Source: Rhodoglobus sp.
Lineage (GTDB): Bacteria; Actinomycetota; Actinomycetes; Actinomycetales; Microbacteriaceae
Assembly: GCA_025464445.1 (NCBI GenBank)
Contig: JAODLY010000041.1
Coordinates: forward strand, 1 to 64,000
Direction of reading: 5' to 3'
Length of the DNA stretch: 64,000 nucleotides
Each line of letters begins with the position of its first letter. Positions within the stretch are counted from its first letter, which is position 1. This document shows positions 20,647-57,256 of this stretch, piece after piece. The notes beneath the pieces were generated by a model. It was not told the DNA's origin. It was given only the letters and a program-made list of their open reading frames with translations, and ran no database searches. Position numbers and translations under genes: made by a program.

Positions 20647-22779
20647 ATGACGAGTGTCGAAAGCCTGCAGGCGAGCCCCTTCGCGGGCGCGCAGGAGAAC
20701 GAGCGAGTGATTGTGCTCCACGTCGTCGAGAGTTGGGGCGCCGGCGTTCGTGCAGCGGTGCTGCAGTTCGCGAATGCGACGCCGGACGTCGAACACCATC
20801 TCATCCGCGGCACGGGGCGCAAAGAGTTCTCCGCCGACGGTGACCCCGTCTTCGCGAGTGTCCGCGAGCTGCCGAAGGGCGCCGTCGCGGCCAGGCGAGC
20901 GATCCGGGATGCCTCGACCGCAACGAACTCCCACATCGTGCACGCCCACTCATCCTTCGCCGGTGTCTTCACCAGGCTGGCGATCAGGAGCACGGCCGCG
21001 CGCCGAGTGCTCTACAGCCCGCACTGCTTCGCGTTCGAACGGCGCGACCTCGGTGCGGTTGCACGGGCCGCCGCCAAAACCATCGAGTGGCTGCTTGCCG
21101 TTAACACCCACACCCTCGTCGCGTGCTCTCCCGGCGAGGCCGCGGCTGCCACGCGCCTCGGCCACCGTCGGGTCGTCTATGTGCCGAACGCTGCGCGCGT
21201 CGCGAAGACCGCGGTCGGCGATTACCAGCAGCGGGTAGTCGCCGTCGGTCGGCTCGGCGCCCAGAAAGACCCGGACTTCTTCCGCGAGACAGTCCGGCTG
21301 CTGCGGACGAGGCGGCCCGGAACGAGCGCGGAATGGATCGGTGACGGTGACGCCGCCGCGAGATCCCGGCTCGAGGCCGACGACATCCGGGTGTCCGGCT
21401 GGATTCCCACCCCGGCCGTGCACCACGGGATCGCCGCGGCGGCCGTGTACCTGCACACGGCAGGCTGGGAGGGCTTCCCCGTCTCGATCCTCGAAGCAGT
21501 GGAACTCGGCATCCCCGTGCTCGCGCGCGAGGTGCCCACACTTCGCGGGGCTACGGCCACCCCCGGCATCCGCACCCCGCAACAGCTTGCGGATGCCGCG
21601 GCCCGCCTCCTCGACGGAGACGAGCCGGCCCGCCTGCGCAACCTCGCCGCCTGGCGCCTCGCGCTCGCTGCGAACACGCAGGAGCGGCAGGCGGATGCCC
21701 TCCGGCTCGCGTACGGCCCGGCCCCGCGCCCGATCCTCATCAACGGCAAATGGCTCGGCGCCCCGCAAAGCGGAATGCAGCGTTACGCGGGCGAGCTCGC
21801 CCGCCGGCTGCTCGACGCCGACGCGACTGCCCGCGTCGCCGTGCCGCGCGGCGTCACGCTGCCGCGCTGGCTGCCGGCCGAGCGGGTGGTGCGCGCGCGG
21901 CTCACGGGCGTGCTGTTCGAACAGCTCGAGTTGCCCCTGCTCGGCCGCGGGTCGACGCTCGTGAACCTCGCCGGCGCCGCGCCAATCGTGGCCCGCGAGC
22001 AGCTCGTGGTCATGCACGATGCGACCCCCGCGCGGTTTCCGCGCACATTCTCGCGCCGGTTCGTGCTCTGGTACCGGTTCATGTACCTGGCGCTGTCCCG
22101 CAGGGCGCTGCATCTTGCGACGGTGTCGGAGTTCAGCCGCCTGGAGTTGTCCGAGGTACTCGGCATCGACGCCCTGCGTATCGCCGTCGCGGCCAACGGT
22201 CATGAGCACGCCGTCGCCGAGCCCGGGTTCGCCCCTACCGCTGAGCTGTGGGCCCGCGCGGCCAAGCCGTACGTGCTCTTCGTCGGTAACCTCACGCCGA
22301 GCAAGAATCTCGCGCCGGTGGCCGCGGCGTTCGCCGCCGAAGGCGTCCCGGTGATCGTCGTCGGGGCGGCGAACACGACGCGCGTGTACGCGCGCGAGGC
22401 CGGGCTCGACATCCCGGGCGTGTGGCTCGCCGGTCGCCTCAGCGATGCCGAGCTGGCCTGGCTGCTGCGCGGTGCACGTGCCCTCGTGTTCCCGTCGCTG
22501 TATGAGGGCTTCGGCCTGCCCATCGTCGAGGCGCAGGCCCTCGGCTGCCCCGTGATCGCCTCAGACCGGGCATCCATTCCCGAGGTCGCCGGGGCCGGTG
22601 CCCTGTATTTCGACCCGCTCGAGCCGCGGCAGGCGGTCGACCTCCTGCTCGGCCTCGACGGCGCGAACCGGAGGCGGCTGGTCGCACTCGGCCACGAGAA
22701 CGTCGAGCGATTCCGGTGGGATGACAGCGCGAACACGATCCTCGCGCTTGCCCGCGGCGCGAAGGTAGCCGCCCGATGA
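20647..22779 (+). CDS. Fused double glycosyltransferase (two GT-B domains)
   Basis: A 710-residue protein that joins two complete GT-B glycosyltransferases. The first (about 18-365) has the GT4-like features HVVESWGAGVR and EGFPVSILEAVELG; the second (about 368-700) begins RPILINGKWLG, contains YVLFVGNLTPSKN and YEGFGLPIVEAQALG. Each EGF-P motif carries the C-terminal Glu that contacts the nucleotide sugar, so both halves look active. ATG at 20647 follows the transferase stop by one base. One polypeptide would add two consecutive sugars to the lipid-linked unit (inference). Confidence 0.88.
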   Translation: MTSVESLQASPFAGAQENERVIVLHVVESWGAGVRAAVLQFANATPDVEHHLIRGTGRKEFSADGDPVFASVRELPKGAVAARRAIRDASTATNSHIVHAHSSFAGVFTRLAIRSTAARRVLYSPHCFAFERRDLGAVARAAAKTIEWLLAVNTHTLVACSPGEAAAATRLGHRRVVYVPNAARVAKTAVGDYQQRVVAVGRLGAQKDPDFFRETVRLLRTRRPGTSAEWIGDGDAAARSRLEADDIRVSGWIPTPAVHHGIAAAAVYLHTAGWEGFPVSILEAVELGIPVLAREVPTLRGATATPGIRTPQQLADAAARLLDGDEPARLRNLAAWRLALAANTQERQADALRLAYGPAPRPILINGKWLGAPQSGMQRYAGELARRLLDADATARVAVPRGVTLPRWLPAERVVRARLTGVLFEQLELPLLGRGSTLVNLAGAAPIVAREQLVVMHDATPARFPRTFSRRFVLWYRFMYLALSRRALHLATVSEFSRLELSEVLGIDALRIAVAANGHEHAVAEPGFAPTAELWARAAKPYVLFVGNLTPSKNLAPVAAAFAAEGVPVIVVGAANTTRVYAREAGLDIPGVWLAGRLSDAELAWLLRGARALVFPSLYEGFGLPIVEAQALGCPVIASDRASIPEVAGAGALYFDPLEPRQAVDLLLGLDGANRRRLVALGHENVERFRWDDSANTILALARGAKVAAR

Positions 22780-23969
22780 AGATCGCCCAGTTCATCAGTT
22801 CACTGCTCGCGCCCCTCGGCGGGGCGGAGCAGTACTGCCTCGAGCTCAGCCGCTGGCTGCGCGATGCCGGGCATGACGTGACGGTCGTCACCGGCTGGAT
22901 CTCCCCGGATGTCGCGGCGACACTCGCGGCAGAGGGGATCGCCGTGCGCCTCCTGCACAGCGCGCGCCCGTATCCCCCCGACCGCAAGGGCTCACGGCCG
23001 GCCGCCGCCCTGTTCCACGCGCTCGACCTGCTCGGGAGCATCAGGACCCCCTCGGCGGTGCGCGGCGTGCTCGCCGAGGAGTGGGACGTCGTGCACGTGC
23101 ACCGCGTGGCCGGCTTCGGCAGTGCGCTGCTGAACGGCCCCCGACCGACGGTGCTCACCGTGCACGACTACGCGCTCGTCGATACGAGCACGACGCTCTT
23201 GCGCGATGGCGTCGAGGCGACCGCGCCGTGGCTCCAGCGTCGGCGCACCACGGTCATCAACCGCTCGCTGCGCAGGGCGCGCCTGGTCTTCCCGAGTGCG
23301 CGCCTGCGCGAGAAGCACGTCGCCTGGGGTCTCGAACTGCCCGAAAAAACCGATGTGCTGCCGCACGGCTGGCGCATCGCGGGCAGTGGTGCCGCCGTCG
23401 CGGGCGTTCGCGATGTCGGCCCCGTGGTGTTCCTGTTCCTGGGCAAGCTCATCCCCGAGAAGGGCGTGCTGCTGCTGCTCGAGGCCTGGGGCGACGGGAT
23501 GCCGGGTGCGGAGCTGTGGATCGCCGGAGCGGGTGTGCTCGAGCCCGAGGTGTCCGCCGCGGCCGCGACCGGGAGGCTCCACGGCCTCGGCTGGCTGGAC
23601 GAGACCGGACGGCGCGCTGCCCTCGCCGCGGCATCCGTGCTCGTATTGCCTTCGGTGTGGCCGGAGAACTTCCCGCTGTCGGCTGCGGAGGGTGTGCTCG
23701 CCGGCCTGCCGCTCGTGAGCACCACGATCGCCTCCCCGCCCGTGCTCGTCGACGGGGTCAACGGCCTGCTGGTGAGCCCGGATGCCGCGAGCCTGCGCTC
23801 GGCAATGCAGCGCCTGCTCGACCCCGCGCTGCGCTCTACGCTCGCGGACGGCGCACGCGAAGTTGCCCGCGACCTCGACTTCGACACCCACGGCGCAAGG
23901 CTTCTCGCGTTGTACAGCGACCACGGCGCCCACCGCGCAGCGTCCGGCAGGGTCGAGGTCTCCCCGTGA
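22776..23969 (+). CDS. GT4-family glycosyltransferase
   Basis: A 397-residue cytosolic GT-B enzyme. The N-terminal acceptor domain starts KIAQFISSLLAPLGGAEQYCLEL, and the C-terminal donor domain has FLFLGKLIPEKGVLLLLEAW and VWPENFPLSAAEGVLAG with the conserved Glu. It overlaps the upstream and downstream genes by 4 nt each, so the block is translationally coupled. Donor and linkage are unknown. Confidence 0.9.
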   Translation: MKIAQFISSLLAPLGGAEQYCLELSRWLRDAGHDVTVVTGWISPDVAATLAAEGIAVRLLHSARPYPPDRKGSRPAAALFHALDLLGSIRTPSAVRGVLAEEWDVVHVHRVAGFGSALLNGPRPTVLTVHDYALVDTSTTLLRDGVEATAPWLQRRRTTVINRSLRRARLVFPSARLREKHVAWGLELPEKTDVLPHGWRIAGSGAAVAGVRDVGPVVFLFLGKLIPEKGVLLLLEAWGDGMPGAELWIAGAGVLEPEVSAAAATGRLHGLGWLDETGRRAALAAASVLVLPSVWPENFPLSAAEGVLAGLPLVSTTIASPPVLVDGVNGLLVSPDAASLRSAMQRLLDPALRSTLADGAREVARDLDFDTHGARLLALYSDHGAHRAASGRVEVSP

Positions 23970-24418
23970 GCCTGCAGGACCGGCTGCTGCGCGCCACCAG
24001 GAGCCGCGTGTTCGGCAGGCTGGCATACCTCGCACTCAAGTCGCTCGGTGTCGAGTTTCCGCGCTCCGTGAAGTGGGATGGCCCTCTCGAGCTCGCGCAC
24101 GGTGCCGTCGGCCTCGTCGTGCATTCGGCAACGCGAATCGGCAGCGGCGTCATCCTCATGCCCGGCGTCGTGCTTGGCAGGGCGGAATCCTGGATCCCCC
24201 CTGGCAAGGTCGCCAACCTGGGCGGCGGCATCACGGTCGGCGACCGGGTTACTGTCGGTGCCGGTGCGAAGGTGCTGTTCAGGGCCGGGCAGCAACTCGT
24301 GGTCGCTGAAGGCAGCGTCGTGGGTGCCAACGCCGTGCTCGTGGACTCGACCGGACCGTGGGAGATCTGGGCGGGCGCGCCGGCGCGCCTGGTCGGCATG
24401 CGCGAGCGCGAGGACTGA
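23966..24418 (+). CDS. Hexapeptide-repeat acetyltransferase (LbH/SAT-like)
   Basis: A 150-residue left-handed beta-helix protein: imperfect hexapeptide repeats (SATRIGSGVILMPGVVLG, then ITVGDRVTVGAGAKVL) and the closing segment IWAGAPARLVG. In polysaccharide loci these proteins O-acetylate a sugar, using acetyl-CoA. Start GTG at 23966 overlaps the glycosyltransferase stop (GTGA). A longer open frame upstream in this phase is antisense-free overlap with the glycosyltransferase and is not used. Confidence 0.85.
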   Translation: MSLQDRLLRATRSRVFGRLAYLALKSLGVEFPRSVKWDGPLELAHGAVGLVVHSATRIGSGVILMPGVVLGRAESWIPPGKVANLGGGITVGDRVTVGAGAKVLFRAGQQLVVAEGSVVGANAVLVDSTGPWEIWAGAPARLVGMRERED

Positions 24419-25768
24419 GTGATAACCGTCCTCGGGATCGCCACGGTGGCGGCCGTCGTCGCGGTGTGGTTCGTGCGCAGGCGATGGATCCAGTACGTCA
24501 TCGGTGCGACCGTCGCCTTCCCGCAGACCGCCGGCCTGATCATCGGCGACAACGGCTTTCCCCTGTTCTACCTGGCAACGATCGTGCTGCTCGGGCTGGG
24601 CATCCCGCACGTGCTTGTCGCTCTCGCCCGGCGGAACGCCCGGCCGGACTCCTCGCGGCGGCTGGCACCCGACCTCATCGGCATCGTGCTTGTCGCATGG
24701 GGCGGCGTGATCACCCTCGCCGGGCCGCGCATCTTCTCTGGCATGCGTGTGTTCGCGCCCGGACTCGGCGTGGACTCACAGGTGGAGAACATGGCGATCC
24801 TCTCGCCATCCCTGGGAAACACAGCCCAGTTCGGCTACCTCGCCCTCGGTGTCGGGTTCCTCCTGCTCGCCGGCCGGCTCTTTCCCGTGGACCGGCGCCT
24901 CATCGGCTGCGCGCTTTGGGTCTCGATAACCCTGGCGGGCGTGCGGATGATCGCTGAACCTGCCTGGCCGCATGACCTGCTGCAGAACATGCCGTCGTTC
25001 CACTACGCGACCCCCGAGCGCCTGTCCGGCACCTTTTACGAGCCGTCGGTGCTCGGACTCTATCTCGTTGCCGCCGCCGGCTACTTCACCGTGAAGCTCT
25101 TCGAGCCCGGATGGCACGGTCGGCTCGCCGCCTGCCTCGCCCTGGCCCTTGTCGTCGTCGAATTCGTCGCGAACGGCTCCGGCACCGCCCTGCTCGGCCT
25201 CGTGGTGCTCGGGGTCATCGGCGCCTCGGTGGGGCTCGTGCGGCAAATGCGCAGTGTGCGGGTCAGCGTGCGGCCATGGGTTGTCGCGGGCTCCGCTGCA
25301 GCGATCGCGATCGGGTTGACGCAGTTGCCGCTGCTCTACAAACTGACTGTCGGCACCGCCAGTGGCAAGAGCGATTCGCTGAGCTTCGCCGCCCGCACCG
25401 CGTCTAACCTACGCGCCTGGCACATTTTTCTCGAGAGCTGCGGGCTCGGCGTAGGGCTCGGCAGCAATCGCCCGTCGAGCCTGTTCTTCCTTGTGCTCAG
25501 CTGCCTCGGCGTTGTTGGCGTCGGGTTGCTCGCGGCTCTCGTATTCCTTGCGCTGGCGCGGGGCGTGAAGGCGCACTCACCCGCTGCCTGGGGGCTCGCC
25601 GGTGTCATTGTTGCCGCAGTCATCGCAGTGCCGGACCTGTCGATGCCGGTGATCTGGATCGGCCTCGCTGCGTGCCTGTTCCCCGATCGCCGGGTGGGGC
25701 ACTCCGAGCCCGAGGTCCTCTCAGCGAGCCCGCTTGCCGAGTTCCTGCCGGGCCCGGCGCGCCAATGA
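24419..25768 (+). CDS. Wzy-like polysaccharide polymerase / O-antigen ligase family
   Basis: A 449-residue polytopic membrane protein with about ten to twelve hydrophobic segments and a large extracytoplasmic loop (about 175-215, containing LSGTFYEPSVLG). This topology and the position among glycosyltransferases fit the Wzy polymerase that joins lipid-linked repeat units outside the membrane. Start GTG directly follows the preceding TGA with no gap. The last 48 nt overlap the 3' end of the converging glycosyltransferase gene. Confidence 0.8.
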   Translation: MITVLGIATVAAVVAVWFVRRRWIQYVIGATVAFPQTAGLIIGDNGFPLFYLATIVLLGLGIPHVLVALARRNARPDSSRRLAPDLIGIVLVAWGGVITLAGPRIFSGMRVFAPGLGVDSQVENMAILSPSLGNTAQFGYLALGVGFLLLAGRLFPVDRRLIGCALWVSITLAGVRMIAEPAWPHDLLQNMPSFHYATPERLSGTFYEPSVLGLYLVAAAGYFTVKLFEPGWHGRLAACLALALVVVEFVANGSGTALLGLVVLGVIGASVGLVRQMRSVRVSVRPWVVAGSAAAIAIGLTQLPLLYKLTVGTASGKSDSLSFAARTASNLRAWHIFLESCGLGVGLGSNRPSSLFFLVLSCLGVVGVGLLAALVFLALARGVKAHSPAAWGLAGVIVAAVIAVPDLSMPVIWIGLAACLFPDRRVGHSEPEVLSASPLAEFLPGPARQ

Positions 25769-26605
25769 CCATCGCTCCACAGTCGAAAGGCCGCCAAGGG
25801 ACGCAACGAACCGGGCGACGAACGGCTCGATGACAGCTCGCCCATCGCGCGTGAGCGGCCCATCGCGAGTGAAAGCCAGTTCGGCGAACCATGGCACGGT
25901 TTCAACCCCCCACAACCGGTGGGCGAACGCGAGGTATGACCGCTCGAGCACGGCATCCCAGGCCAGGCTCTCCCGCCAGCCCAGCGCAGCAGTAACCTGG
26001 GTCGCGCTTTTGCGGATGAGCACCGTCGGGCGGGCAAGGCGCACCATCGTCGCCCCGTTCGTCGCTGCCCTGAGCCAGAGGTCGTAATCCTCCGCGATCG
26101 CGCCGACGCGGTATCCACCTGCATCGCGCAGTACCGAGCTCCTTGCCAGCGATGTGGAGTGCGGGTACGGGCAGTCCAGCAGCAGGGCAAGCCTCGCGGC
26201 ATCCGGCCCGAAGCGAATCGGCGGCACCGGCCTGCGGATACCAGCCCCGATCACCTGGAATGTCGAGAACACGATGTCGGCGCCTTCATCGATCGCCGCG
26301 AGCTCCCCGCCGAAGCGCCCCCGCAGGCACACGTCATCCGAATCCATGCGCGCCACGAGTTCTCCGCTTGCGCGGGCGAGCAGCAGCTCGGCCGCCCGCG
26401 CCACCCCGAGCTGCTCGACGGAGGCGATGACCTCGACCCGCCGGTCGCCTGTCGATGAGGCGATTTCGCGGGTGCCGTCTGTGCTCGCGTCGTCGAGCAC
26501 GAGCAACTCAGCATCGCGCGGCAGGTCACGCAGTGTCGAGCGCAGCGCTTCGCCGATCGTGCGCTCTGCATTGCGGGCTGGCATCAGGACGCTGAGGCGG
26601 GGCAT
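25721..26605 (-). CDS. GT2-family glycosyltransferase
   Basis: GT-A fold transferase with the canonical start PRLSVLMPARNAE, DDASTDGT, and the metal-binding DxD in RMDSDDVCL. About 294 residues. The start is put at ATG 26605 because an AGGA Shine-Dalgarno lies 9 nt upstream; the in-frame ATG at 26614 is too close to it. It is the only glycosyltransferase of the locus on this strand and it faces away from box B, so that region may serve as a divergent promoter. Confidence 0.9.
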   Translation of the reverse strand: MPRLSVLMPARNAERTIGEALRSTLRDLPRDAELLVLDDASTDGTREIASSTGDRRVEVIASVEQLGVARAAELLLARASGELVARMDSDDVCLRGRFGGELAAIDEGADIVFSTFQVIGAGIRRPVPPIRFGPDAARLALLLDCPYPHSTSLARSSVLRDAGGYRVGAIAEDYDLWLRAATNGATMVRLARPTVLIRKSATQVTAALGWRESLAWDAVLERSYLAFAHRLWGVETVPWFAELAFTRDGPLTRDGRAVIEPFVARFVASLGGLSTVERWSLARRARQELGKRAR

Positions 26606-26637
26606 GGAATCCATTCCTCGTGGCGGGTGGGCGAGCC

Positions 26638-26801: not shown

Positions 26802-27233
26802 ATGCACAGCACCCGAGCTGGCGTGATCGAAGCACACCGCGATATGCGTGTGGGCTGCGACATCCACCCCGTATCCAATGTCGTCCAGAGCATCGAGGTC
26901 TTCGGCGACCGCTACCTCGCCCGCGTCTTCACGCCAGCCGAGCGCGAATACTGCGCCGGTCCGTCGTTCGTCGAGAAGCTCGCAGGCCGGTTCGCGGCCA
27001 AAGAGGCGGTGCTCAAGGCGCTGCAGGTGCCTGGCGACATCCCGATCCCGTGGCCGAACATCGAAGTGCTCCCGGATGCGGTCGGCGCCCCGATAGTGCG
27101 CCTCGCCGGCAACGCTGCGGCTTTCGCGGCCGCCAGGGGAGTTTCGAGCATCCAGCTGTCGATCAGCCACGACGATGGGTTCGCTTTCGCCTTCGCGATC
27201 GCCGTACATGACAGATTGGAGCAGGCGGCATGA
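26802..27233 (+). CDS. AcpS-type 4'-phosphopantetheinyl transferase
   Basis: Transfers phosphopantetheine from CoA onto a carrier-protein serine. The 143-residue protein keeps the AcpS signatures: VGCDIHPV (Mg-binding Asp20), FTPAEREYC, and RFAAKEAVLKAL (Glu68 and Lys), then SISHD. An in-frame ATG at 26844 is an alternative start that trims a non-conserved 14-residue lead. It is first in a five-gene overlapping cassette, so it probably serves the carrier protein encoded next rather than fatty acid synthesis. Confidence 0.88.
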   Translation: MHSTRAGVIEAHRDMRVGCDIHPVSNVVQSIEVFGDRYLARVFTPAEREYCAGPSFVEKLAGRFAAKEAVLKALQVPGDIPIPWPNIEVLPDAVGAPIVRLAGNAAAFAAARGVSSIQLSISHDDGFAFAFAIAVHDRLEQAA

Positions 27234-27481
27234 TCGCTCTCGACGACATCCGGCGCATACTCGATGCCCACGCCAAATTGCGCGTTCCTGCTGCATCCGT
27301 CGAACCGAACGACGACCTCTACGCGTCCGGGATGACCTCGCATGCGAGCGTGAACGTCATGCTCGCGCTCGAGGACGCGTTCGATGTCGAGTTTCCGGAC
27401 GACCTTTTGACAAAGACCACCTTCTGCACGATTTCCGCGATCGGCGCAGCACTCGACACCCTCGTGACGGTGGATGCATGA
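27230..27481 (+). CDS. Dedicated acyl/peptidyl carrier protein
   Basis: An 83-residue carrier protein. The phosphopantetheine serine is Ser37 in GMTSHAS, placed eight residues before LALEDAFDVEFPD, as in fatty acid ACP. The usual Asp before this serine is Thr here. Overlap of 4 nt on both sides links it to the phosphopantetheinyl transferase and the dehydrogenase. In this context it most likely carries an aminoacyl group loaded by the ligase encoded two genes downstream. Confidence 0.9.
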   Translation: MIALDDIRRILDAHAKLRVPAASVEPNDDLYASGMTSHASVNVMLALEDAFDVEFPDDLLTKTTFCTISAIGAALDTLVTVDA

Positions 27482-28644
27482 GCGCAACCACCATCCAACC
27501 CACGGTAACCCTCGCCGCGAGGGCAGCCGTGGTCGCCGCAATCGCCGCCCAATACGCCGCCGACGTGGATGCCGCGGCTCGCTTTCCTCACGAAGCGATA
27601 GCCGCGCTGCGCGAGCACGGCCTGCTGGGCACCTCTGTGCCCCGCGAGTTCGGCGGCGAAAGCGCCACGCTGGCGGACCTCGCCGCTGTCGCAGCAGTGC
27701 TGGGCGCTGCCTGCTCATCGACCGGGATGATTTTCGCGATGCACCACAGCCAGGTGCTCAGCCTCACCCGTCACCTCGACGGTGCCCCCGCACTCGAACT
27801 GCTCGTCTCACGCATCGCGAGTGAGCAGTTGTTGGTGGCTTCGGCCACCACGGAGCTGGGCATCGGCGGGGATGTGCGATCGAGCCTCTGTTTCGTCGAC
27901 AGGGATGGCCAGACGGCGACCCTGGCCAAGAATGCCCCGGTCATCTCCTACGGGGCCGAAGCCGATCTCATCCTCGTGACCGCGCGGACGGATGCCGACA
28001 GTGCGCCGAGCGACCAGGTGCTTGTCGCCTGCGATCGCGATTCCACGACCCTCGAGGAGACCTCGGGCTGGGACACCATGGGCCTGCGCGGCACGAGCAG
28101 CAGGGGCTACCGGCTCACGGCCCGCGTCGACCTCGAACGGGTTGTGCCCACGCCCTACGAGGCGATCTCGACCGAGACGATGCTTCCCGTTTCGCACACC
28201 CTGTGGGCTGCGGTCTGGCTGGGCATGTCGCGCGCGGCAACCGAGATCTCCCGCCAGTACGTGCGCGCGGCGGCACGGCGCAGCATTGGCAGCCTGCCCT
28301 CCGGGGCGACCGCACTCGTCGGCCTCATCGCGGAGCTTGAACGTTTCGAGGCACTCGTAACCGCTGCGGGCGCGCGCTTCGATGACCTCAGCGCGGACCG
28401 AGCTGCGCTCGGCTCTGTCGGCTATCTCGTGAGCATGAACAACCTCAAGGTCACGGCATCGACACTCGTCGCGGACATTGTCGCTCGCGCCCTCTCCATC
28501 ACCGGCATCTCCGGCTATCGCAACGAGGGCCAGTACAGCGTCGCACGCCTGTTCCGCGACGCGCAGGGTGCAGCCCTCATGGTGCACAACGACCGGATCA
28601 TCGCGAACACCGCACAGCTCATCCTCGTCCAGAAGGGTTCATGA
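27478..28644 (+). CDS. Acyl-CoA dehydrogenase-like flavoprotein
   Basis: A 388-residue FAD enzyme of the acyl-CoA dehydrogenase superfamily, with the helical N domain, the beta domain (ASATTELGIGGD, GWDTMGLRGTSSRGY) and the helical C domain (ITGISGYRNEGQYSVARLFRD). Near the position of the catalytic Glu of medium-chain dehydrogenase (after the RDA at 360-362) the sequence has VHND and no Glu. A carrier-bound aminoacyl thioester is a likely substrate, comparable to prolyl-S-carrier dehydrogenases; this is inference from context. ATG at 27478 overlaps the carrier protein stop. Confidence 0.85.
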   Translation: MSATTIQPTVTLAARAAVVAAIAAQYAADVDAAARFPHEAIAALREHGLLGTSVPREFGGESATLADLAAVAAVLGAACSSTGMIFAMHHSQVLSLTRHLDGAPALELLVSRIASEQLLVASATTELGIGGDVRSSLCFVDRDGQTATLAKNAPVISYGAEADLILVTARTDADSAPSDQVLVACDRDSTTLEETSGWDTMGLRGTSSRGYRLTARVDLERVVPTPYEAISTETMLPVSHTLWAAVWLGMSRAATEISRQYVRAAARRSIGSLPSGATALVGLIAELERFEALVTAAGARFDDLSADRAALGSVGYLVSMNNLKVTASTLVADIVARALSITGISGYRNEGQYSVARLFRDAQGAALMVHNDRIIANTAQLILVQKGS

Positions 28645-28645
28645 C

Positions 28646-29587
28646 ATGACGATCATCGACACGGAGCGGGTTTCCGCTCTCGACGCCGCGAGGTCGGAGT
28701 TCAGGGACCAGCTGCTGGCCTCCGGCCTGTTGGTCGGCACGTCCGTGCCCGGCATCTACGGCCGCTCCGGCGCATTCGAGAGCATCGTCGCCGGGCTCGA
28801 CAGGTTGCTCGCCGAGATGGTCGGTCCGCTTCAAGCCCAGGTGCTGCGCTTCCCGCCGGTCTACCCACGTGCCGACTTCGAGCGCACCGACTACATCGCA
28901 TCCTTCCCCGACCTCAGCGGGGTGGTGTCGAGTTTCGAGCGTGGCGACAAGGAGCACGCAGCGCTGCTCAGCGCGCGCGCGGACGGCCACGCCTGGGACG
29001 GCTGGCTCGATCCCACGGACGTCGTGCTCACGCCCGCCATCTGTCACCCGCTGTATGCGACGCTCGAGGGGGAGCTGCCGGATGGCGGTGCCACCTTCGA
29101 CCTCTCGGGCTATGGCTTCCGCCACGAACCCTCAAATGACCCGATGCGCATGCAGTCGTTCAGGATGCGCGAGTTCGTCTACGTGGGAACCCCGGACGCA
29201 GCCCAATTGTTCCGTGACTCCTGGCTGGACAGGGCGCTCGAGACGCTCGCATCCCTCGGCCTCGCTGTCGACGCCGTGCCTGCGAACGACCCGTTCTTCG
29301 GCCGTGCCGGGCGCATGCTGGTGAGCGCCCAGTTGCGCGAGAACCTCAAGATCGAGATCGTCGTTCCCCTCTATGGCGACCTCTCCGAGGGCACGGCGAT
29401 CGCGTCCGCGAACTGCCAGCGCGATCACCTCACCGCCGCCTTCGGCATCCTGACTGCGGATGGCGCTGTAGCTCACGGCGCCTGCGTCGCGTTCGGCATG
29501 GAGCGCGTAACGCTCGCGTTGCTGCGCACCCACGGCCTCGATTTCCTGGCCTGGCCGGAGGGCGTTCGCGCACTCCTGGGGCTGTGA
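28646..29587 (+). CDS. Amino acid:[carrier protein] ligase (class II aaRS-like)
   Basis: A 313-residue relative of the class II synthetase core, resembling the atypical seryl-tRNA synthetase catalytic domain without a tRNA-binding domain. Known members activate glycine or alanine with ATP and load it on a carrier protein. Predicted zinc ligands are present and similarly spaced: Cys133 (AICHP), Glu176 (MREFVYVG) and Cys280 (GACVAFGMERV), with motif 3 Arg287. The start is ATG at 28646, 1 nt after the dehydrogenase stop; the open frame upstream is shadow. It should load the carrier protein of the same cassette. Confidence 0.87.
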   Translation: MTIIDTERVSALDAARSEFRDQLLASGLLVGTSVPGIYGRSGAFESIVAGLDRLLAEMVGPLQAQVLRFPPVYPRADFERTDYIASFPDLSGVVSSFERGDKEHAALLSARADGHAWDGWLDPTDVVLTPAICHPLYATLEGELPDGGATFDLSGYGFRHEPSNDPMRMQSFRMREFVYVGTPDAAQLFRDSWLDRALETLASLGLAVDAVPANDPFFGRAGRMLVSAQLRENLKIEIVVPLYGDLSEGTAIASANCQRDHLTAAFGILTADGAVAHGACVAFGMERVTLALLRTHGLDFLAWPEGVRALLGL

Positions 29588-29594
29588 TCTCCGG

Positions 29595-31298
29595 ATGATG
29601 GTCGATACCTGGTTCGGTGCAGAAGATGCACGGACCCTGGGTTTCCTGCACGTTCCCGACGACGGCGTAGCCCGTGGCGGTGTGGTCATCTGCCCACCGC
29701 TCGGGTACGACCACGCCCTTGGCTACCGGGGGATGCGCTACTTCGCGCAGCAACTGGAGGCTGCCGGCGTCGCGGCAATCCGCTTCGACTACCTCGGTGA
29801 GGGCGATGCGAGCGGTGCAACGGCATCCCCCAACTCGCAGGAGCGCTGGCTCACGACAATCGAGAACGCCGTCGCCTACCTGCACGAGTCCGGCGTGGAG
29901 CGTGTCGTCGTTCTCGGCTTGCGCAGTGGCGCCCTTCTCGCGGTCCGCGCGATGGATCGGCTGCGGGATGTCGCGGCTCTTGTGCTTTGGGACCCCGACC
30001 TTTCCGGCCGCCGTTTCGTGCGCAGGCAGCGCTCCTTGTACGAACTCACTGTCGGCGCAACGCCGCAAAGTGCAGACGACGCTGTGGCTCTGATCTCGCT
30101 CACACTCCACTCGTCCACGGCGGCATGGGTCGAGGGACTCGAGGTCACAGCGGGAGGTCTCTCCTCGGTCGGCGTCGAGACCCTCGTGCTCGGGCGCCGC
30201 GCGGACGATGCGAGCGCGGCATCCCGCAGAATCGCGCAAAGCGATGCCGCCGGCGTCGACTACCGCGTCATCGACGGGCAGGAAGAGTGGCTCGAGGCGC
30301 CCGGCGCGCTCGCGATCCTGCCCCAGGACTCCATTCGCACGATCATCCAGTGGGTGGGTGAGCGTCTTCCCGTTGCGGGAGGGCCCGTCCTGCCGGCGAT
30401 CACCGCGGAAACCCTCGTGGGCACATCGGCGGACGGCGTACCGATCGTCGAGCGCATTCGCCGCGTTGGCCCGAACGAACTCTTCGCCATCGAGACAGTT
30501 CTTGGCGACCAGCCGACCGAGGAGGAGCGCGGCATGATCGTGCTTCAGCCGGGCGCGGCGGAGCACCGTGTGGGCCCGGGCCGCTTCCAGGTGGACGCGG
30601 CCCGCGAGCTCGCTGCCCAGGGGTTTCGCGCAATCCGTTTCGACCGCAGGATCACCGGTGACAGCACTGAGGTGCGCCCTGGTGAACCGAGCCTCGTTTT
30701 CGCCGAGGAGTGGGTGGACGACGCCGATGACCTCATCGCGGGGCTCGCGACCGACAGCCCCCTCGTACTCGCCGGCCTGTGCGCCGGCGGCTGGGTGTCT
30801 GCTCGGGTTACCGAACGCCACACTGCCCGCCTGACGGTGCTCATGAGTCCGAACTACTTCAAGACCACATCGCTCAAGCCAGGCGGCTATACGAGGCTCA
30901 CCGAGACCCACCGCGATCACACACCCCTCATCGATAGGGTCAAGGGCGCGCTGCGGGAGCATGTCCCCGGCTGGCTGTGGCGCATGCTGGCGGGCCTCCA
31001 GCTATTCCACGATCCTGCGGTGCTCCTCGAAGCACCCAGTCGCAACCGGCGGAGCACGGTGGCGATCCTGCTCACTCCCGAAGACGTGGAGAACTTCGCA
31101 GGGCACCGCGGACCCGATGCGGTCGCGAGGCTCCGGGTTCACGGCGCAGATATTCGCGTGACGACCTACCCCTTCGGCGACCACTCGCTGTTCGGTGAGG
31201 AGGTGCGCGCGGCGATGCGGCGCGACCTGCTTGCGCTCGCCGAGAGCACGGTGCCCCAGGTCGCCGGGCCAGCCCTCGCGGAGCGCAGGCCGGCGTGA
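29595..31298 (+). CDS. Two-domain alpha/beta-hydrolase, both nucleophile elbows atypical
   Basis: A 567-residue fusion of two alpha/beta-hydrolase domains. Domain 1 (about 1-260) has the elbow GLRSG (108-112), where the nucleophile position is Arg. Domain 2 (about 275-550) has GLCAG (394-398), with Cys as nucleophile, and a late His530 in GDHSLF. The GLRxGA and GLCxG elbows recall the paired hydrolases of exosortase-type exopolysaccharide loci. I infer that domain 1 is non-catalytic and domain 2 a Cys-dependent thioesterase or acyltransferase. It starts 7 nt after the ligase gene; its own stop overlaps the flippase start. Confidence 0.8.
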   Translation: MMVDTWFGAEDARTLGFLHVPDDGVARGGVVICPPLGYDHALGYRGMRYFAQQLEAAGVAAIRFDYLGEGDASGATASPNSQERWLTTIENAVAYLHESGVERVVVLGLRSGALLAVRAMDRLRDVAALVLWDPDLSGRRFVRRQRSLYELTVGATPQSADDAVALISLTLHSSTAAWVEGLEVTAGGLSSVGVETLVLGRRADDASAASRRIAQSDAAGVDYRVIDGQEEWLEAPGALAILPQDSIRTIIQWVGERLPVAGGPVLPAITAETLVGTSADGVPIVERIRRVGPNELFAIETVLGDQPTEEERGMIVLQPGAAEHRVGPGRFQVDAARELAAQGFRAIRFDRRITGDSTEVRPGEPSLVFAEEWVDDADDLIAGLATDSPLVLAGLCAGGWVSARVTERHTARLTVLMSPNYFKTTSLKPGGYTRLTETHRDHTPLIDRVKGALREHVPGWLWRMLAGLQLFHDPAVLLEAPSRNRRSTVAILLTPEDVENFAGHRGPDAVARLRVHGADIRVTTYPFGDHSLFGEEVRAAMRRDLLALAESTVPQVAGPALAERRPA

Positions 31299-32587
31299 GT
31301 CTCGTCGCCCTCGTGAGGGGTCGCGCCAGCAGCCTCGGGCTCTATGGCGCCTCGGTTGTGCTGAACGGCGCGATCAGCCTCATCACCATCCCGGTCATCG
31401 TTGCGATTGCCGGCGCCGGGCCGTGGGCCTCGATGGCGACCGGGCAGTCCATCGGGGGATCTTTCGGGGTGCTTGTCGCCTTCGGGTGGGGGCTCACCGG
31501 GCCCGCCACGATCGCGATGACTGCGCCCGATCGCCGACCCGCCCTCTTTCTCGACTCGCTGTTCGCCCGTGGAGCGCTGCTCATCCCGTTGCTGCTCATC
31601 GAGGCCGTGGTGACGATGGCGATTGTGCCGAATGCGAAGGTCGTCGCCTTTGCCGCCGGCCTCTCGATGACGCTCGCCGGCGCATCCGCGAACTGGTACT
31701 TCACCGGGGAAAGCCGCCCGGGCCGATTCCTCGTTCTCGACACGGTCCCGAGGGTGGGTGGAACCATCCTCGGCCTGCTCCTGGTGCTCGCCACCCACGA
31801 GCTGTTGTTCTTCGCACTCGCCCAGCTCGCCGGGTCGCTCGTGGCCCTCATCGCCTCGGCCGTCGTCATCCTTCGGCGCCGCGAGCTGGACTTTCGTGCG
31901 GCATCCCGCTGGAGTGCGATCGTCGAGAGCCTCGCCGAACAGCGCCATGGCGTCGTCGCAACCGGCCTGTACGCCGCATTCACACCCGCCGTGCTGGCGA
32001 TCGTTGCCCTGGCCGCTCCCACGGTGCTGCCGCTGTTCGTGTTGGCTGACCGGCTCTCCAAGTTCGTTGGCATGGCGGTGTCTCCGCTTACGCAGGTATT
32101 CCAGGGCTGGGTCCCATCGGTCTTTGGGGCGGAGCTCGTGCGCCGCCTGCGAGTCTCGGGCACCGTGACTGTGGTCACTGCGCTGGTTGCCGGCACCCTG
32201 TACGCGGCGCTGTTGCCCTGGTTCGCCACGCTGCTCACCCACGGCCAGGTCGTTTTCGACGCTGTGACCGCAATCGCGTTTGGTCTCATCGCCGCGATCC
32301 AGGTCGTGCTGCCCTTCCTCACCAACGTGGCACTCATGGCGGTGGGGCGGCTCCGTGTGATCGCCCTGAGTGCGTCGGTGGGGGTGCCGCTCTCGCTCGC
32401 CGCGCTCGTCTTCGTCGTGTGGGCACGAGGCGGGGAGTATTCGGCGTGGGCCCTCGTCGGTGGCAACCTGGTGATTCTCGCCTGGCAGGTCATCGCACTG
32501 CGGGAAACCCTCGCGCGACTGGGAGCCGTTGTAGGCGGCGACGCAGCCATCGTGCCGGTGCAGCGCATCCGCGTTCCGGCCCCTTAA
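31295..32587 (+). CDS. Wzx-like polysaccharide flippase
   Basis: A 430-residue membrane protein with about twelve hydrophobic segments. It fits the oligosaccharide flippase (MOP superfamily) that moves lipid-linked repeat units across the membrane. Start GTG at 31295 overlaps the hydrolase stop (GTGA), so the export step is cotranscribed with the carrier-protein cassette. Its TAA stop is part of box C. Confidence 0.85.
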   Translation: MSLVALVRGRASSLGLYGASVVLNGAISLITIPVIVAIAGAGPWASMATGQSIGGSFGVLVAFGWGLTGPATIAMTAPDRRPALFLDSLFARGALLIPLLLIEAVVTMAIVPNAKVVAFAAGLSMTLAGASANWYFTGESRPGRFLVLDTVPRVGGTILGLLLVLATHELLFFALAQLAGSLVALIASAVVILRRRELDFRAASRWSAIVESLAEQRHGVVATGLYAAFTPAVLAIVALAAPTVLPLFVLADRLSKFVGMAVSPLTQVFQGWVPSVFGAELVRRLRVSGTVTVVTALVAGTLYAALLPWFATLLTHGQVVFDAVTAIAFGLIAAIQVVLPFLTNVALMAVGRLRVIALSASVGVPLSLAALVFVVWARGGEYSAWALVGGNLVILAWQVIALRETLARLGAVVGGDAAIVPVQRIRVPAP

Positions 32588-32750: not shown

Positions 32751-34763
32751 ATGGACATCCACGACTATCTCGGCGTGCTGCGCCGCGGCTGGGCTTTCCT
32801 GCTGCTCGGCGTACTCGTCGGAGTCGGCGCAGGAGCCGCGGCACAATCCATACAGGTGCCCAGCTATTCGGCGACCTCAAGGGACCTCATCACGAACGAC
32901 ACGTCGACGGACCTCACGGCGTCCCTGCAGGCGTCAAACCTCGCCCAGTCGCGGATCGCCTCATACGTGCTCGTCGTCTCGAGCGGCCTCGTGCTGCAGC
33001 CGGTGATCGACGAACTGGGCCTGGACATGACTGTCGACCAACTCGCCGGGCACCTCGCGGTGAGCGCCCCGGCGAACACACTCGTCATCGAGATCACGGC
33101 CAGTGCAGCATCCCCGGCTCTCGCCCAACGCATCGCGAACGCCACGAGCACCGTGTTCAGCACGGTGGTGGCCAACCAGATCGAGGCCGGAGTGCTCGTG
33201 CCTGCGCCCACGGCGAGCCCCACGCCCGGCGCGGTCCCCACGCCGGGTGCGACGGCGGCCCCGCTCGTTGCCGTGTCACCGGTCAGGGTCGTGAACATCG
33301 AGAAGGCCACCCTTCCCGCTGCGCCGAACAGCTCCGACGCGTCCCTCTTCCTGGTCGTCGGCGCCTTCCTCGGCCTCGCCGGGGGTCTTGTCGGCGCTTC
33401 GCTGCGCGAATCGCTCGACCGCCGCATTCGGGGACGCAAGGATGTCGCGGCGGCAACCACGCTCCCGGTCGTGGGCGAGGTGCGTCCCGACCGCACGATC
33501 CGCAGCACCCCGCTCGTGGTGAACACGATCCCGGGCGGCGCGACGGCGGAATCGTTCAGGGCCCTCAGGGCGAATCTCGAGCACATCCGCCTGCGCGACG
33601 GTCGCCGCACATTCGTGCTCGCGGCAATGGGGGCCAGGCAGGGCTCGTCGACGATCGCCGCGAACCTCGCGCTGGCGGTGGCCAACACCGCGACATCCGT
33701 TGTCGTGGTCGATGCAAACCTGTTGTCACCGACTCTCTCCTTCATCTTCGACAGCGCCGGTGCCCGTGGCCTCAGCGATGTGCTCACCGGCGAGGCCGAC
33801 CTCGATTCTGTGCTTCGCCACGGCACGATCGGCGACCTGTGGCTGCTGCCCGCCGGCGCGGTTCGCCCCGGCAGCGGCGAGCTGTTGGCTACCCAGGCGA
33901 TGCGCCAGCTCCTGGCCAGGCTGGAGGAGCGTTTCGACGTCGTGTTGATCGACGCCCCGGCGATCGGCCCGGTGACGGATGCCGCAGTGCTCGGCGCGTT
34001 CGGCGGTGCGACGCTCGTCGTGGCCGCAGAGGGCGTCGCCACCCGTCCCGCTTTGGCCCAGGCACTCGTCACCCTCGTCGCCGGAGGAAGCACCCCGATC
34101 GGGATAGTGCTCAACCGCATCCCGAGGCTGCTCAAGGGCCGCAGGTCGAAGGGGCGCGCGCGCCGGTTGCCTTCGCTACCTGCTCTCGCCGCGCGCCAGC
34201 GTCCACCGCGGGCGCCCAAGGTCGCACGTGAGCTCAGGCCCTCCAAGGCCCCGAAGCAGAAGCCCCCGCGACGGACAGTCGCCCCGGTGGCCGCCAGGAC
34301 GGTTCTCGATGCGCCACCTTCGCGTTTCGCCCCGGATCCCGCCCTGTCCGGCGCACTCAAGCCCATAGTGCCGTCCGCCGCCCTGCGCGCCCTTGGCGCG
34401 CCCATGCCTGCGGTCGGCGTGAAAGAGCCGGAGCGCGAAGAGCCTACGCAGCCCGCGCAAGAGCCCGAAGCCGAGATCGAGGAACAGCGCGAGCCGCGCC
34501 GTGTGACTGTCGGCGGCTACTCGAATGTCACTGCCATTACCCCCGCGATCTCGAAGGAACGCCTGGCCCGGGAGAACTACCTGCTCAAGTCACGCGAGCT
34601 CGAGCACGCCGCGAAGGAGCGCCTCGCCCACGAGCAGCGCAGGCTCGAGCTGCGAATTCGCGACCAACTCGATCACGAGAAGCGCGAACTCGGGCTCGTG
34701 CTCGACGATGAACTCGAAGACACGGTGATCCTGCCGACATTGCTCGCTGACGGCAAGGTCTAG
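32751..34763 (+). CDS. Wzz/Wzc-like polysaccharide co-polymerase with a broken P-loop
   Basis: A 670-residue membrane protein: helix 1 (about 14-32), an extracytoplasmic Wzz domain (about 33-198) with a Thr/Pro/Ala-rich stretch, helix 2 (about 199-217), and a cytoplasmic BY-kinase-like ATPase (about 262-460). The P-loop reads GARQGSST (294-301), where the invariant Lys is Ser299; Walker A' has DAN at 321 instead of DxD, and Walker B Asp401 remains. A 200-residue tail is basic and proline-rich, then a charged coil; there is no tyrosine cluster. Expect chain-length control without kinase activity. ATG 32751 follows leader C. Confidence 0.85.
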   Translation: MDIHDYLGVLRRGWAFLLLGVLVGVGAGAAAQSIQVPSYSATSRDLITNDTSTDLTASLQASNLAQSRIASYVLVVSSGLVLQPVIDELGLDMTVDQLAGHLAVSAPANTLVIEITASAASPALAQRIANATSTVFSTVVANQIEAGVLVPAPTASPTPGAVPTPGATAAPLVAVSPVRVVNIEKATLPAAPNSSDASLFLVVGAFLGLAGGLVGASLRESLDRRIRGRKDVAAATTLPVVGEVRPDRTIRSTPLVVNTIPGGATAESFRALRANLEHIRLRDGRRTFVLAAMGARQGSSTIAANLALAVANTATSVVVVDANLLSPTLSFIFDSAGARGLSDVLTGEADLDSVLRHGTIGDLWLLPAGAVRPGSGELLATQAMRQLLARLEERFDVVLIDAPAIGPVTDAAVLGAFGGATLVVAAEGVATRPALAQALVTLVAGGSTPIGIVLNRIPRLLKGRRSKGRARRLPSLPALAARQRPPRAPKVARELRPSKAPKQKPPRRTVAPVAARTVLDAPPSRFAPDPALSGALKPIVPSAALRALGAPMPAVGVKEPEREEPTQPAQEPEAEIEEQREPRRVTVGGYSNVTAITPAISKERLARENYLLKSRELEHAAKERLAHEQRRLELRIRDQLDHEKRELGLVLDDELEDTVILPTLLADGKV

Positions 34764-56035: not shown

Positions 56036-56056
56036 GGGAGAACCATATGCGTCCGA

Positions 56057-56069
56057 TTCAGCGCTGTAA
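56057..56069. promoter_or_regulatory. LacI-type operator at the GH2 promoter
   Basis: TTCAGCGCTGTAA has the perfect core CAGCGCTG with central CG, as in LacI-family operators. It lies about 10 bp upstream of the GH2 -10 box and resembles the site at 57139. The protein encoded at 56080-57099 is the obvious candidate. Confidence 0.6.
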
Positions 56070-56079
56070 AGTCAAAACC

Positions 56080-57099: not shown

Positions 57100-57110
57100 G
57101 GCCATATCTT

Positions 57111-57124
57111 AAGCGGCGCCGCTT
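57111..57124. promoter_or_regulatory. 14-bp perfect palindrome at the lacI promoter
   Basis: AAGCGGCGCCGCTT touches the lacI -10 box. It differs from the AGCGCT sites and could be an autoregulatory operator or another protein's site. Confidence 0.5.
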
Positions 57125-57131
57125 GCGTTCG

Positions 57132-57160
57132 TTGACATTTACAGCGCTATAGATTAGCGT
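57132..57160 (+). promoter_or_regulatory. Promoter of the ABC sugar importer operon with embedded LacI operator
   Basis: TTGACA (57132-57137), a 17-bp spacer and TAGCGT (57155-57160). The spacer holds TTACAGCGCTATAG (57139-57152), a near-palindrome with core AGCGCT matching the GH2 site. Repressor bound here would block RNA polymerase. The transcript would have a leader of ~90 nt. Confidence 0.7.
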
Positions 57161-57256
57161 CCACTTTCAACCGAGCTACCCGCCGGTCGACGACGACCGG
57201 ACCCCGAGCGATGCTGCTGACGGGGACCCGGGATGCTCCCGGCACCAGGAGACAGA

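What the first reader, a model, noticed from the sequence alone, without database searches (positions are those of the whole stretch)
26802..31298. Carrier-protein amino-acid activation cassette embedded in an exopolysaccharide locus
Five closely packed genes encode a phosphopantetheinyl transferase, a carrier protein, an acyl-CoA-dehydrogenase-like flavoprotein, an amino acid:[carrier protein] ligase with predicted Zn ligands C133/E176/C280, and a two-domain hydrolase; the hydrolase stop overlaps the Wzx-like flippase start. Established: ligases of this aaRS-like family load Gly/Ala on carrier proteins, and ACAD-like enzymes can oxidise carrier-bound prolyl thioesters. Inference: a small amino acid is loaded, oxidised on the carrier and transferred to, or used to modify, the polysaccharide. 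I know of no described pathway with exactly this set.
Basis: partly seen in the sequence, partly recalled or inferred. Interest (0 to 1): 0.82.

Follow-up and report, generated by a model that had tools for sequence, protein, structure and literature searches.

The report
Amino-acid tailoring cassette in polysaccharide locus
An actinobacterium carries, inside a gene set for a probable secreted polysaccharide, five genes that may load a small amino acid on a carrier protein, oxidise it and attach it to the polysaccharide; a related system was predicted in 2010 and I found no test of it in the papers I could search, and this version lacks the attaching enzyme predicted then.

Summary
Window 26802-31298 encodes an AcpS-type phosphopantetheinyl transferase, carrier protein, acyl-CoA-dehydrogenase-like flavoprotein, amino acid:[carrier protein] ligase (above its NCBIfam cut-off; Zn ligands C133/E176/C280 in 30 of 30 aligned) and a two-domain alpha/beta hydrolase (HYD) overlapping a Wzx-like gene. 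The five-gene order recurs in 24 other genomes: 7 in the same polysaccharide locus, 17 without a recognised polysaccharide gene nearby, 12 of these at one Curtobacterium site. In the window's genus, ligase and locus glycosyltransferase occur in the same 6 of 27 genomes.

The core idea is not new: a 2010 note in proof (PMC2922099) predicted that ligase, carrier, redox enzyme and a conserved ORF aminoacylate cell-surface sugars. DUF1839, which I take to be that ORF, has no match in this genome. HYD has an inactive-looking N-domain and Cys395-Asp496-His529 in its C-domain, fitting a carrier-to-glycan acyltransferase. The flavoprotein has no Asp/Glu at the canonical base columns in 62 of 62 sequences, so simple desaturation is doubtful, though a conserved acid sits nearby. 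Verdict: new variant of a predicted kind; chemistry untested.

The parts
26802..27233 (+). PPT: AcpS-type phosphopantetheinyl transferase, 143 aa; D20, E68, K72 conserved (taken as the AcpS catalytic residues from recall)
   Evidence: PF01648 57 bits; D20 in 58 of 59, E68 and K72 in 59 of 59 aligned homologues, duplicates included
27230..27481 (+). CP: carrier protein, 83 aa, phosphopantetheine site Ser37 in GMTSHASVN
   Evidence: NF005480 93.8 bits, cut-off 72; Ser37 in 96 of 96, duplicates included; fused to PPT in 5 other loci
27478..28644 (+). ACAD: acyl-CoA-dehydrogenase-fold flavoprotein, 388 aa, probably oxidises the carrier-bound aminoacyl group
   Evidence: PF02771/PF00441; AlphaFold model pLDDT 93.6; Foldseek ranks 1-3 are the monooxygenases TdsC and DszC, with dehydrogenases at ranks 4 and 6; sequence profile ranks dehydrogenases first; no Asp/Glu at the canonical base columns
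28646..29587 (+). LIG: amino acid:[carrier protein] ligase, 313 aa, Zn ligands C133/E176/C280
   Evidence: NF005479 398.5 bits, cut-off 357; 4h2w E 5e-68; ligands invariant in the 30 aligned
29595..31298 (+). HYD: two-domain alpha/beta hydrolase; N-domain mostly without nucleophile, C-domain with Cys395/Asp496/His529; proposed carrier-to-glycan acyltransferase
   Evidence: C395 54 of 54, H529 54 of 54, D496 52 of 54; N-domain nucleophile column R33/A12/G6/S3 (53 of 55 named-locus HYDs by length, plus the window); Ser at the Cys place in one further row, L054; model pLDDT 93.9, solved structures match about half of it
31295..32587 (+). Wzx-like flippase, start overlaps HYD stop
   Evidence: 430 aa, 10 TM-like segments, no family hit; follows HYD in 7 of 7 other polysaccharide loci
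32751..34763 (+). Wzc-type chain-length regulator / tyrosine autokinase
   Evidence: TIGR01007 117.3 bits, cut-off 108
19236..20645 (+). priming sugar (polyprenyl glycosylphospho)transferase
   Evidence: PF02397 225 bits
20647..22779 (+). double GT4 glycosyltransferase
   Evidence: PF13692, 2 stretches; present in the same 6 of 27 genus genomes as LIG
22776..23969 (+). GT4 glycosyltransferase
   Evidence: PF13692 77.3 bits
23966..24418 (+). hexapeptide-repeat acetyltransferase; no copy was called in the Salinibacterium sp. G-O1 locus (L039 = L072), so probably not essential to the cassette
   Evidence: PF00132; arrangements
24419..25768 (+). Wzy-like polymerase
   Evidence: 449 aa, 10 TM-like segments; no family hit above noise
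25721..26614 (-). GT2 glycosyltransferase, opposite strand, separates the cassette from the upstream genes
   Evidence: PF00535 83.9 bits

Best explanation
A dedicated carrier-protein tailoring cassette for the exopolysaccharide built by the surrounding Wzx/Wzy-type locus. PPT makes holo-CP (supported by motifs). LIG adenylates a small amino acid, most likely glycine or alanine, and loads it on CP as a thioester (by membership of a characterised family; amino acid inferred). The ACAD-fold flavoprotein then oxidises the carrier-bound aminoacyl group; N- or C-alpha oxygenation or oxidation is more likely than alpha,beta-desaturation (inferred). HYD accepts the acyl group on Cys395 of its C-terminal domain and hands it to a hydroxyl or amino group of the lipid-linked repeat unit in the cytoplasm, just before the co-encoded Wzx-like protein flips it (inferred).
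For: LIG and CP pass family cut-offs; key residues are conserved in PPT, CP and LIG. PPT and CP are one fused protein in 5 loci. In the window 3 of 5 joints, counting that into Wzx, are 4-nt overlaps, and HYD is followed by the Wzx-like gene in 7 of 7 other polysaccharide loci. LIG and the locus glycosyltransferase occur in the same 6 of 27 genus genomes. In the wider ligase family 37 of 75 named loci have a glycosyltransferase or EPS-type gene within 6 genes of LIG; a priming transferase is found in 20 of 80 named and 10 of 33 unnamed loci against 0 of 20 control stretches. At the Curtobacterium-type aceE site, where most cassettes stand alone, one locus (L054, fused form) has a priming transferase, a double GT4 and a GT4 next to it. 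HYD Cys395 is conserved in 54 of 54 (one Ser row outside that set). A HYD homologue (276 bits, GLCAG elbow) ends a CP-ACAD-LIG-DUF1839-GH2-hydrolase run in Azospirillum lipoferum. HYD has no TM-like segment, so a cytoplasmic step fits.
Against: 17 of 24 other genomes with the intact order have no gene like those of the window's polysaccharide locus in the fetched stretch. Amino acid, oxidation and acceptor are not shown. HYD could be a plain thioesterase. By sequence profile the ACAD is nearest to dehydrogenases, and an acid conserved in 62 of 62 (D/E372) could be a shifted base. Co-inheritance of cassette and locus may only reflect transfer of one contiguous block.
Confidence: 0.5

Rival explanations
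1. The cassette makes a free small molecule (an oxidised amino-acid derivative or conjugate); HYD releases it as a thioesterase, and its place in the polysaccharide locus is a chance insertion in one clade.
For: Intact cassette without a recognised polysaccharide gene nearby in 17 of 24 other genomes, 12 of them at one Curtobacterium site beside aceE and an AhpC-type gene.
Against: Same locus and HYD followed by the Wzx-like gene in 7 of 7 EPS-type genomes; ligase relatives beside glycosyltransferase genes in Thiomonas (L138), Methylobacterium (L150) and Tsukamurella; L054 has three such genes at the Curtobacterium site; no exporter gene belongs to the five-gene unit.
Confidence: 0.2
2. As in the best explanation for the glycan, but HYD is a proof-reading thioesterase and another enzyme is the transferase, for example the hexapeptide acetyltransferase at 23966-24418 or a membrane protein of the locus.
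For: Alpha/beta hydrolases beside carrier proteins are often editing thioesterases (recalled); 18 of 75 named ligase loci have both HYD and DUF1839, and DUF1839 is, in my reading, the transferase predicted in 2010.
Against: DUF1839 has no match in the window genome and is absent in 19 of 21 ligase-bearing genomes searched, one of them only 77 % complete; no hexapeptide gene was called in the Salinibacterium sp. G-O1 locus, which keeps the cassette; Cys instead of Ser at the nucleophile is unusual for editing enzymes (recalled).
Confidence: 0.2
3. The flavoprotein is a true dehydrogenase that makes an alpha,beta-unsaturated or iminoacyl thioester, perhaps with a displaced base (D/E372). (This concerns one step and can be combined with the other readings.)
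For: Acyl-CoA dehydrogenase Pfam domains; dehydrogenases rank first by sequence and the best NCBIfam model is a dehydrogenase, Rv1679/FadE16, 110.8 bits against a cut-off of 600; dehydrogenases at fold ranks 4 and 6; D/E372 acidic in 62 of 62.
Against: The canonical base columns lack acids in 62 of 62, while 9 of 9 usable controls have Glu at the IVD-type column (the controls were the best matches to the prolyl-CP dehydrogenase model, so they lean to that type); fold ranks 1-3 are the monooxygenases TdsC and DszC; glycine, a likely substrate, has no beta carbon.
Confidence: 0.3

Closest known systems
Amino acid:[carrier protein] ligases (Bradyrhizobium Bll0957, PDB 3mey/4h2w; NF005479)
   Same: Ligase itself: above the curated cut-off, aligned over residues 24-313, same three Zn ligand positions in the alignment, adjacent carrier protein of family NF005480
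   Different: The cassette adds a dedicated PPT and HYD; substrate of this ligase untested
Predicted cell-surface sugar aminoacylation system (note in proof, PMC2922099, 2010): ligase + ACP + redox enzyme + Atu2574-type protein (DUF1839 in my reading) + glycosidase
   Same: Ligase, carrier and redox enzyme core; genomic link to polysaccharide genes; proposed function
   Different: No DUF1839 match in the genome; no DUF1839 or GH2 gene in the cassette; a two-domain Cys hydrolase is the candidate for the transfer step
Exosortase-A associated hydrolases 2 and 1 (TIGR03101, TIGR03100)
   Same: N half of HYD resembles hydrolase 2, C half hydrolase 1 (78.5 and 66 bits)
   Different: Far below cut-offs 202.75 and 168.45; two domains in one protein; no exosortase was looked for in this genome
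Prolyl-carrier-protein dehydrogenases (RedW type, NF045652)
   Same: Acyl-CoA dehydrogenase fold; known to act on carrier-bound proline (recalled and model name)
   Different: 38.7 bits against a cut-off of 650; no Glu at the canonical base columns
ACAD-fold flavin monooxygenases (TdsC, DszC) and nitrososynthases (KijD3, DnmZ)
   Same: Best fold matches of the ACAD model, TM about 0.8
   Different: About 20 % identity; DszC model 39.1 bits against cut-off 850; none of the five genes is a flavin reductase

Membership tests
Amino acid:[carrier protein] ligase (NF005479) | score above curated family cut-off | tested here: met
   398.5 against 357 bits
Amino acid:[carrier protein] ligase (NF005479) | Cys/Glu/Cys zinc site | tested here: met
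   C133/E176/C280 invariant in the 30 aligned; aligned with 3mey/4h2w; metal binding itself not tested
Amino acid:[carrier protein] ligase (NF005479) | no tRNA-binding domain; only the catalytic core resembles type-2 SerRS | tested here: met
   313 aa; SerRS 3w3s matched only over chain residues 298-505 of 527
Amino acid:[carrier protein] ligase (NF005479) | loads Gly or Ala on a holo-carrier | not testable with these tools
   needs assay; the Gly/Ala statement was read in a passage of PMC5370406
2010 predicted sugar-aminoacylation system | ligase + carrier + redox enzyme together | tested here: met
2010 predicted sugar-aminoacylation system | Atu2574-type amide-forming protein (taken as DUF1839) | tested here: not met
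   no PF08893 match in the window genome; 2 of 21 ligase-bearing genomes have one. That Atu2574 is DUF1839 is my reading; no call compared them
2010 predicted sugar-aminoacylation system | operon glycosidase (GH2-like) | tested here: not met
   no such gene in the window cassette or called by the GH2 model in five of the seven matching EPS loci, L072-L076; not searched for genome-wide. A different GH2 protein lies at window 54131-56035
2010 predicted sugar-aminoacylation system | linked to polysaccharide genes | tested here: met
Prolyl-CP dehydrogenase (NF045652) | family score | tested here: not met
   38.7 against 650 bits
Prolyl-CP dehydrogenase (NF045652) | glutamate general base at a canonical ACAD position | tested here: not met
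   0 of 62 with D/E at columns 238, 239 or 369; D/E372 noted; base positions recalled
ACAD-fold flavin monooxygenase | fold | tested here: met
   TdsC and DszC are ranks 1-3; the dehydrogenase fold is the same, so this does not discriminate
ACAD-fold flavin monooxygenase | family score (DszC, NF043015) | tested here: not met
   39.1 against 850 bits
ACAD-fold flavin monooxygenase | need for reduced flavin and O2 | not testable with these tools
   biochemical
Exosortase-A hydrolase 1/2 (TIGR03100, TIGR03101) | score above cut-off | tested here: not met
   66 against 168.45 and 78.5 against 202.75

The most novel reading that the evidence does not exclude
The five genes are a portable polysaccharide-decorating module with a new type of acyltransferase: a pseudo-hydrolase/Cys-hydrolase fusion that moves an N- or C-alpha-oxidised glycyl group (for example N-hydroxyglycyl or glyoxylyl, a reactive aldehyde or metal-binding handle) from a carrier protein to a polysaccharide repeat unit before export, replacing the DUF1839 route of the ligase family.
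Probability: 0.2. Interest if true: 0.78.

Novelty: new variant of a known kind. Interest (0 to 1): 0.52.

Why it matters
The ligases have solved structures and a reported loading reaction, but I found no paper that shows what the loaded amino acid is for; a role on surface sugars was predicted in 2010. A cassette that sits in a compact Wzx/Wzy polysaccharide locus, has only five genes and has no DUF1839 in the genome makes that question directly testable: one ligase or HYD deletion and one polysaccharide analysis. If the reading is right, it adds carrier-protein chemistry of the nonribosomal-peptide type to the tools by which bacteria decorate polysaccharides, with HYD as a candidate Cys-dependent transferase.

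Tried and rejected
Rejected: a GT2-PPT fusion in L049/L050. The long ORF was my gene caller running through the antisense of the GT2 gene. Rejected: membership of the prolyl-CP dehydrogenases for the ACAD. A mobile-element origin was not tested as such; 94 plasmid records carry a ligase relative, all below 60 % identity.

Led nowhere: the NF045652 search returned no match over the cut-off in 149 genomes; ten of its matches were used as controls and one (L173) dropped because its frame was wrong. Promoter scan: 0 found. Paper searches on the exosortase link, on DszC-type catalytic residues (passages of PMC10696468 gave no residue usable here) and on glycyl exopolysaccharides gave nothing that I used. 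A comparison of the ligase alignment with the window ligase, itself a row of it, was uninformative. My GT/EPS detector uses models from the window's own genes, so its counts are a floor; 5 of 80 named loci (L122, L131, L141, L142, L148) gave no gene calls. I did not reach other phyla with the genome search, so the neighbourhoods of hydrolases 1/2 in exosortase genomes were not examined. No model coordinates were in the Python box, so distances between H89, H240, D372 and the flavin site were not measured. On recheck I corrected one draft statement: 12, not 13, of the Curtobacterium-type genomes with the intact order share the aceE site; L110 lies elsewhere.

Papers: PMC2922099, passages and all of section 17; PMC10318531, PMC9437257, PMC5370406, PMC10696468, passages; PMC4663550, search listing and start of abstract. 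The original ligase papers (PNAS 2010, Structure 2013) were not seen (the first is not held; the second was not asked for). That I found the exact five-gene set nowhere in print rests, in an open-licence library only.

Full report
What is there. The window is contig C30:1-64000 of a 2.84-Mb genome; its nearest named relatives by ligase are Salinibacterium sp. G-O1 and MAGs labelled Rhodoglobus, Leifsonia and Schumannella, that is Microbacteriaceae. From 26802 to 31298 five genes lie head to tail on the + strand; of the five joints, counting the one into the Wzx-like gene at 31295, three are 4-nt start-stop overlaps. Family searches give an AcpS-type phosphopantetheinyl transferase (PPT), a carrier protein (CP; NF005480 over cut-off), an acyl-CoA-dehydrogenase-fold protein (ACAD), an amino acid:[carrier protein] ligase (LIG; NF005479 398.5 bits, cut-off 357; solved relatives 4h2w/3mey) and a 566-aa alpha/beta-hydrolase protein (HYD).

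Surroundings. Upstream: a priming sugar transferase, a double GT4 glycosyltransferase, a GT4, a hexapeptide acetyltransferase, a Wzy-like membrane protein and a GT2 on the opposite strand. Downstream: a Wzx-like flippase, a Wzc-type tyrosine kinase, and a LuxR-type regulator on the opposite strand. Wzy and Wzx are named by size, 10 TM-like segments and position; no family model matches them. I read this as a Wzx/Wzy-type exopolysaccharide locus.

Distribution. At E <= 0.001 LIG occurs in 6 of 27 genomes of the genus (6 over the family cut-off), 18 of 349 of the family (14 over) and 10 of 396 of a phylum sample (4 over), the window's genome included each time. The locus glycosyltransferase (window 20647-22776) occurs at E <= 1e-80 in 6 of the same 27 genus genomes, and they are the same six. 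In 7 of these it lies in the same polysaccharide locus and HYD is followed by the Wzx-like gene. In 17 no gene like those of the window's polysaccharide locus was recognised in the fetched stretch. Thirteen of the 17 are Curtobacterium-type genomes (named, or of genus label g32, which two named Curtobacterium contigs share); 12 of these lie beside homologues of aceE and an AhpC-type gene, L110 does not. Five further loci carry PPT and CP as one fused protein, PPT~CP-ACAD-LIG, four of them followed by HYD. The fusion is good evidence that this PPT serves this CP. Four of these five loci have at least one glycosyltransferase-type hit, and L054, at the aceE site, has a priming transferase, a double GT4 and a GT4 directly upstream.

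The wider system. Of 80 named ligase loci, 75 gave gene calls with a ligase above my threshold: CP in 72, ACAD in 66, PPT in 42; HYD without DUF1839 in 35, DUF1839 without HYD in 18, both in 18, neither in 4; 37 of 75 have a glycosyltransferase or EPS-type gene within six genes of LIG. Controls are few and only actinobacterial, the two locus sets overlap, and related genomes are not independent. Annotated plasmid examples: Tsukamurella tyrosinosolvens has PPT, CP and ligase inside an exopolysaccharide cluster; Azospirillum lipoferum has CP-ACAD-LIG-DUF1839-GH2-hydrolase in one run with no glycosyltransferase beside it, and that hydrolase matches my HYD model at 276 bits with the same GLCAG elbow; Rhizobium acidisoli has CP-ACAD-LIG-DUF1839 behind an exopolysaccharide repressor gene, next to nif genes; Shinella has CP-ACAD-LIG-DUF1839-GH2 without adjacent glycosyltransferases, with a GumC-family gene about 6 kb away. 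These are 4 of the 94 plasmid records with a match. In a ligase tree of 88 rows the window and five named loci of the polysaccharide type form one clade (100/100), while HYD and DUF1839 partners are spread over the rest.

What was already proposed. A note added in proof to PMC2922099 (2010; section 17 read) says that the ligase is linked to an ACP, a redox enzyme, a conserved uncharacterised protein (for example Atu2574), a glycosidase and liposaccharide genes, and predicts ligation of an amino acid to an amino group of a cell-surface sugar, with the redox enzyme modifying the aminoacyl group, probably by monooxygenation. I take Atu2574 to be a DUF1839 protein; no call compared them. PMC10318531 (passages) describes DUF1839 as papain-like and suggests glycan processing. 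New here, as far as the searched library shows, is the DUF1839-free version: PF08893 has no match in the window genome and is found in only 2 of 21 ligase-bearing genomes searched (one of the 21 is 77 % complete), so HYD has to be considered for the transfer step.

HYD. Both halves have alpha/beta-hydrolase family matches; the model has pLDDT 93.9 and solved structures match about half of it. In 54 aligned sequences (the window and 53 of 55 named-locus HYDs that passed a length filter) the C-terminal domain has Cys395 in 54, Asp496 in 52 and His529 in 54, in a G-x-C-x-G elbow. At the N-domain nucleophile column there is Arg in 33, Ala in 12, Gly in 6 and Ser in 3, so that domain looks inactive in most members. 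In the other alignment of 24 one row, L054, has Ser in place of Cys. A Cys nucleophile suits acyl transfer from a thioester (general knowledge, inference). HYD resembles exosortase-associated hydrolases 2 and 1 but is far below their cut-offs.

ACAD. By sequence the nearest solved structures are acyl-CoA dehydrogenases. The fold model (pLDDT 93.6) is closest to the FMN monooxygenases TdsC and DszC (ranks 1-3), with a dehydrogenase at rank 4, KijD3 at 5 and a dehydrogenase at 6, all within about one order of magnitude in E-value. Columns 238, 239 and 369, which cover the two known base positions of acyl-CoA dehydrogenases (positions recalled), hold no Asp or Glu in 62 of 62 sequences (the window and 61 of 66 named-locus ACADs that passed a length filter), whereas 9 of 9 usable controls have Glu at the IVD-type column. 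H89, S157, H240, N371 and R373 are invariant in these 62; in the other alignment of 25, N371 has an exception. Against this reading, D/E372 is acidic in 62 of 62 and might be a displaced base. I take oxygenation or other non-desaturating oxidation as more likely, not as shown.

Mechanism and its status. Supported by sequence: PPT and CP key residues, ligase family, operon-like layout. Inferred from the family: loading of Gly or Ala (PMC5370406 passage). Inferred only: type of oxidation, transfer by HYD Cys395, acceptor on the lipid-linked repeat unit, timing before Wzx. An amino-acid-decorated exopolysaccharide is reported for Vibrio alginolyticus (PMC4663550, title and start of abstract), so such a product is chemically reasonable. 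The strongest evidence against a purely polysaccharide role is the stand-alone cassette in most Curtobacterium-type genomes; a diffusible product remains possible there.

Verdict. Observation confirmed; interpretation partly supported; a new variant of a predicted kind of system for which I found no test. It is useful because this compact version makes the question of what the loaded amino acid is for directly testable.

Noticed in passing
L045 about 13814-13951 (G155:C30:16613-16750): A 46-residue match to the ligase C-terminus (29 bits, E 7e-7) lies between a PPT gene and a HYD-like gene, beside a complete CP-ACAD-LIG-DUF1839-GH2 set: it may be a remnant of a second cassette.
   Followed up: partly
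L041 and L042 (G016:C8 and G016:C10): One genome of the window's genus carries both forms: the five-gene cassette in its polysaccharide locus and a separate CP-LIG-DUF1839-GH2 set.
   Followed up: partly
L054 (G316): At the aceE site where most Curtobacterium-type cassettes stand alone, this locus has a priming transferase, a double GT4 and a GT4 upstream of a fused PPT~CP cassette; its HYD has Ser in place of Cys395.
   Followed up: partly
window 34760-37291 (-): A LuxR-type regulator of about 843 aa follows Wzc on the opposite strand and is conserved there in 6 of 7 other polysaccharide loci; the seventh contig ends before it.
   Followed up: no
window:27478-28644, residue 372 of the ACAD: Asp or Glu in 62 of 62 relatives, three residues after the usual MCAD-type base column: possible displaced catalytic acid.
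   Followed up: no
L143 (Propionibacteriaceae MAG): PPT-CP-ACAD-LIG-HYD followed by a second, divergent ligase.
   Followed up: no
L059 (G224): Fused PPT~CP with ACAD and LIG, but no HYD was called; a 57-aa ORF lies in its place.
   Followed up: no
L192 (Rhizobium acidisoli plasmid pRapFH23a): Ligase operon downstream of nif genes and an exopolysaccharide repressor gene on a plasmid typed as conjugative, strain from a root nodule.
   Followed up: no
window 54131-63998: A carbohydrate-use region: GH2, solute-binding protein and a transport permease, GH43 and a BNR/3-keto-disaccharide-hydrolase-like protein.
   Followed up: no
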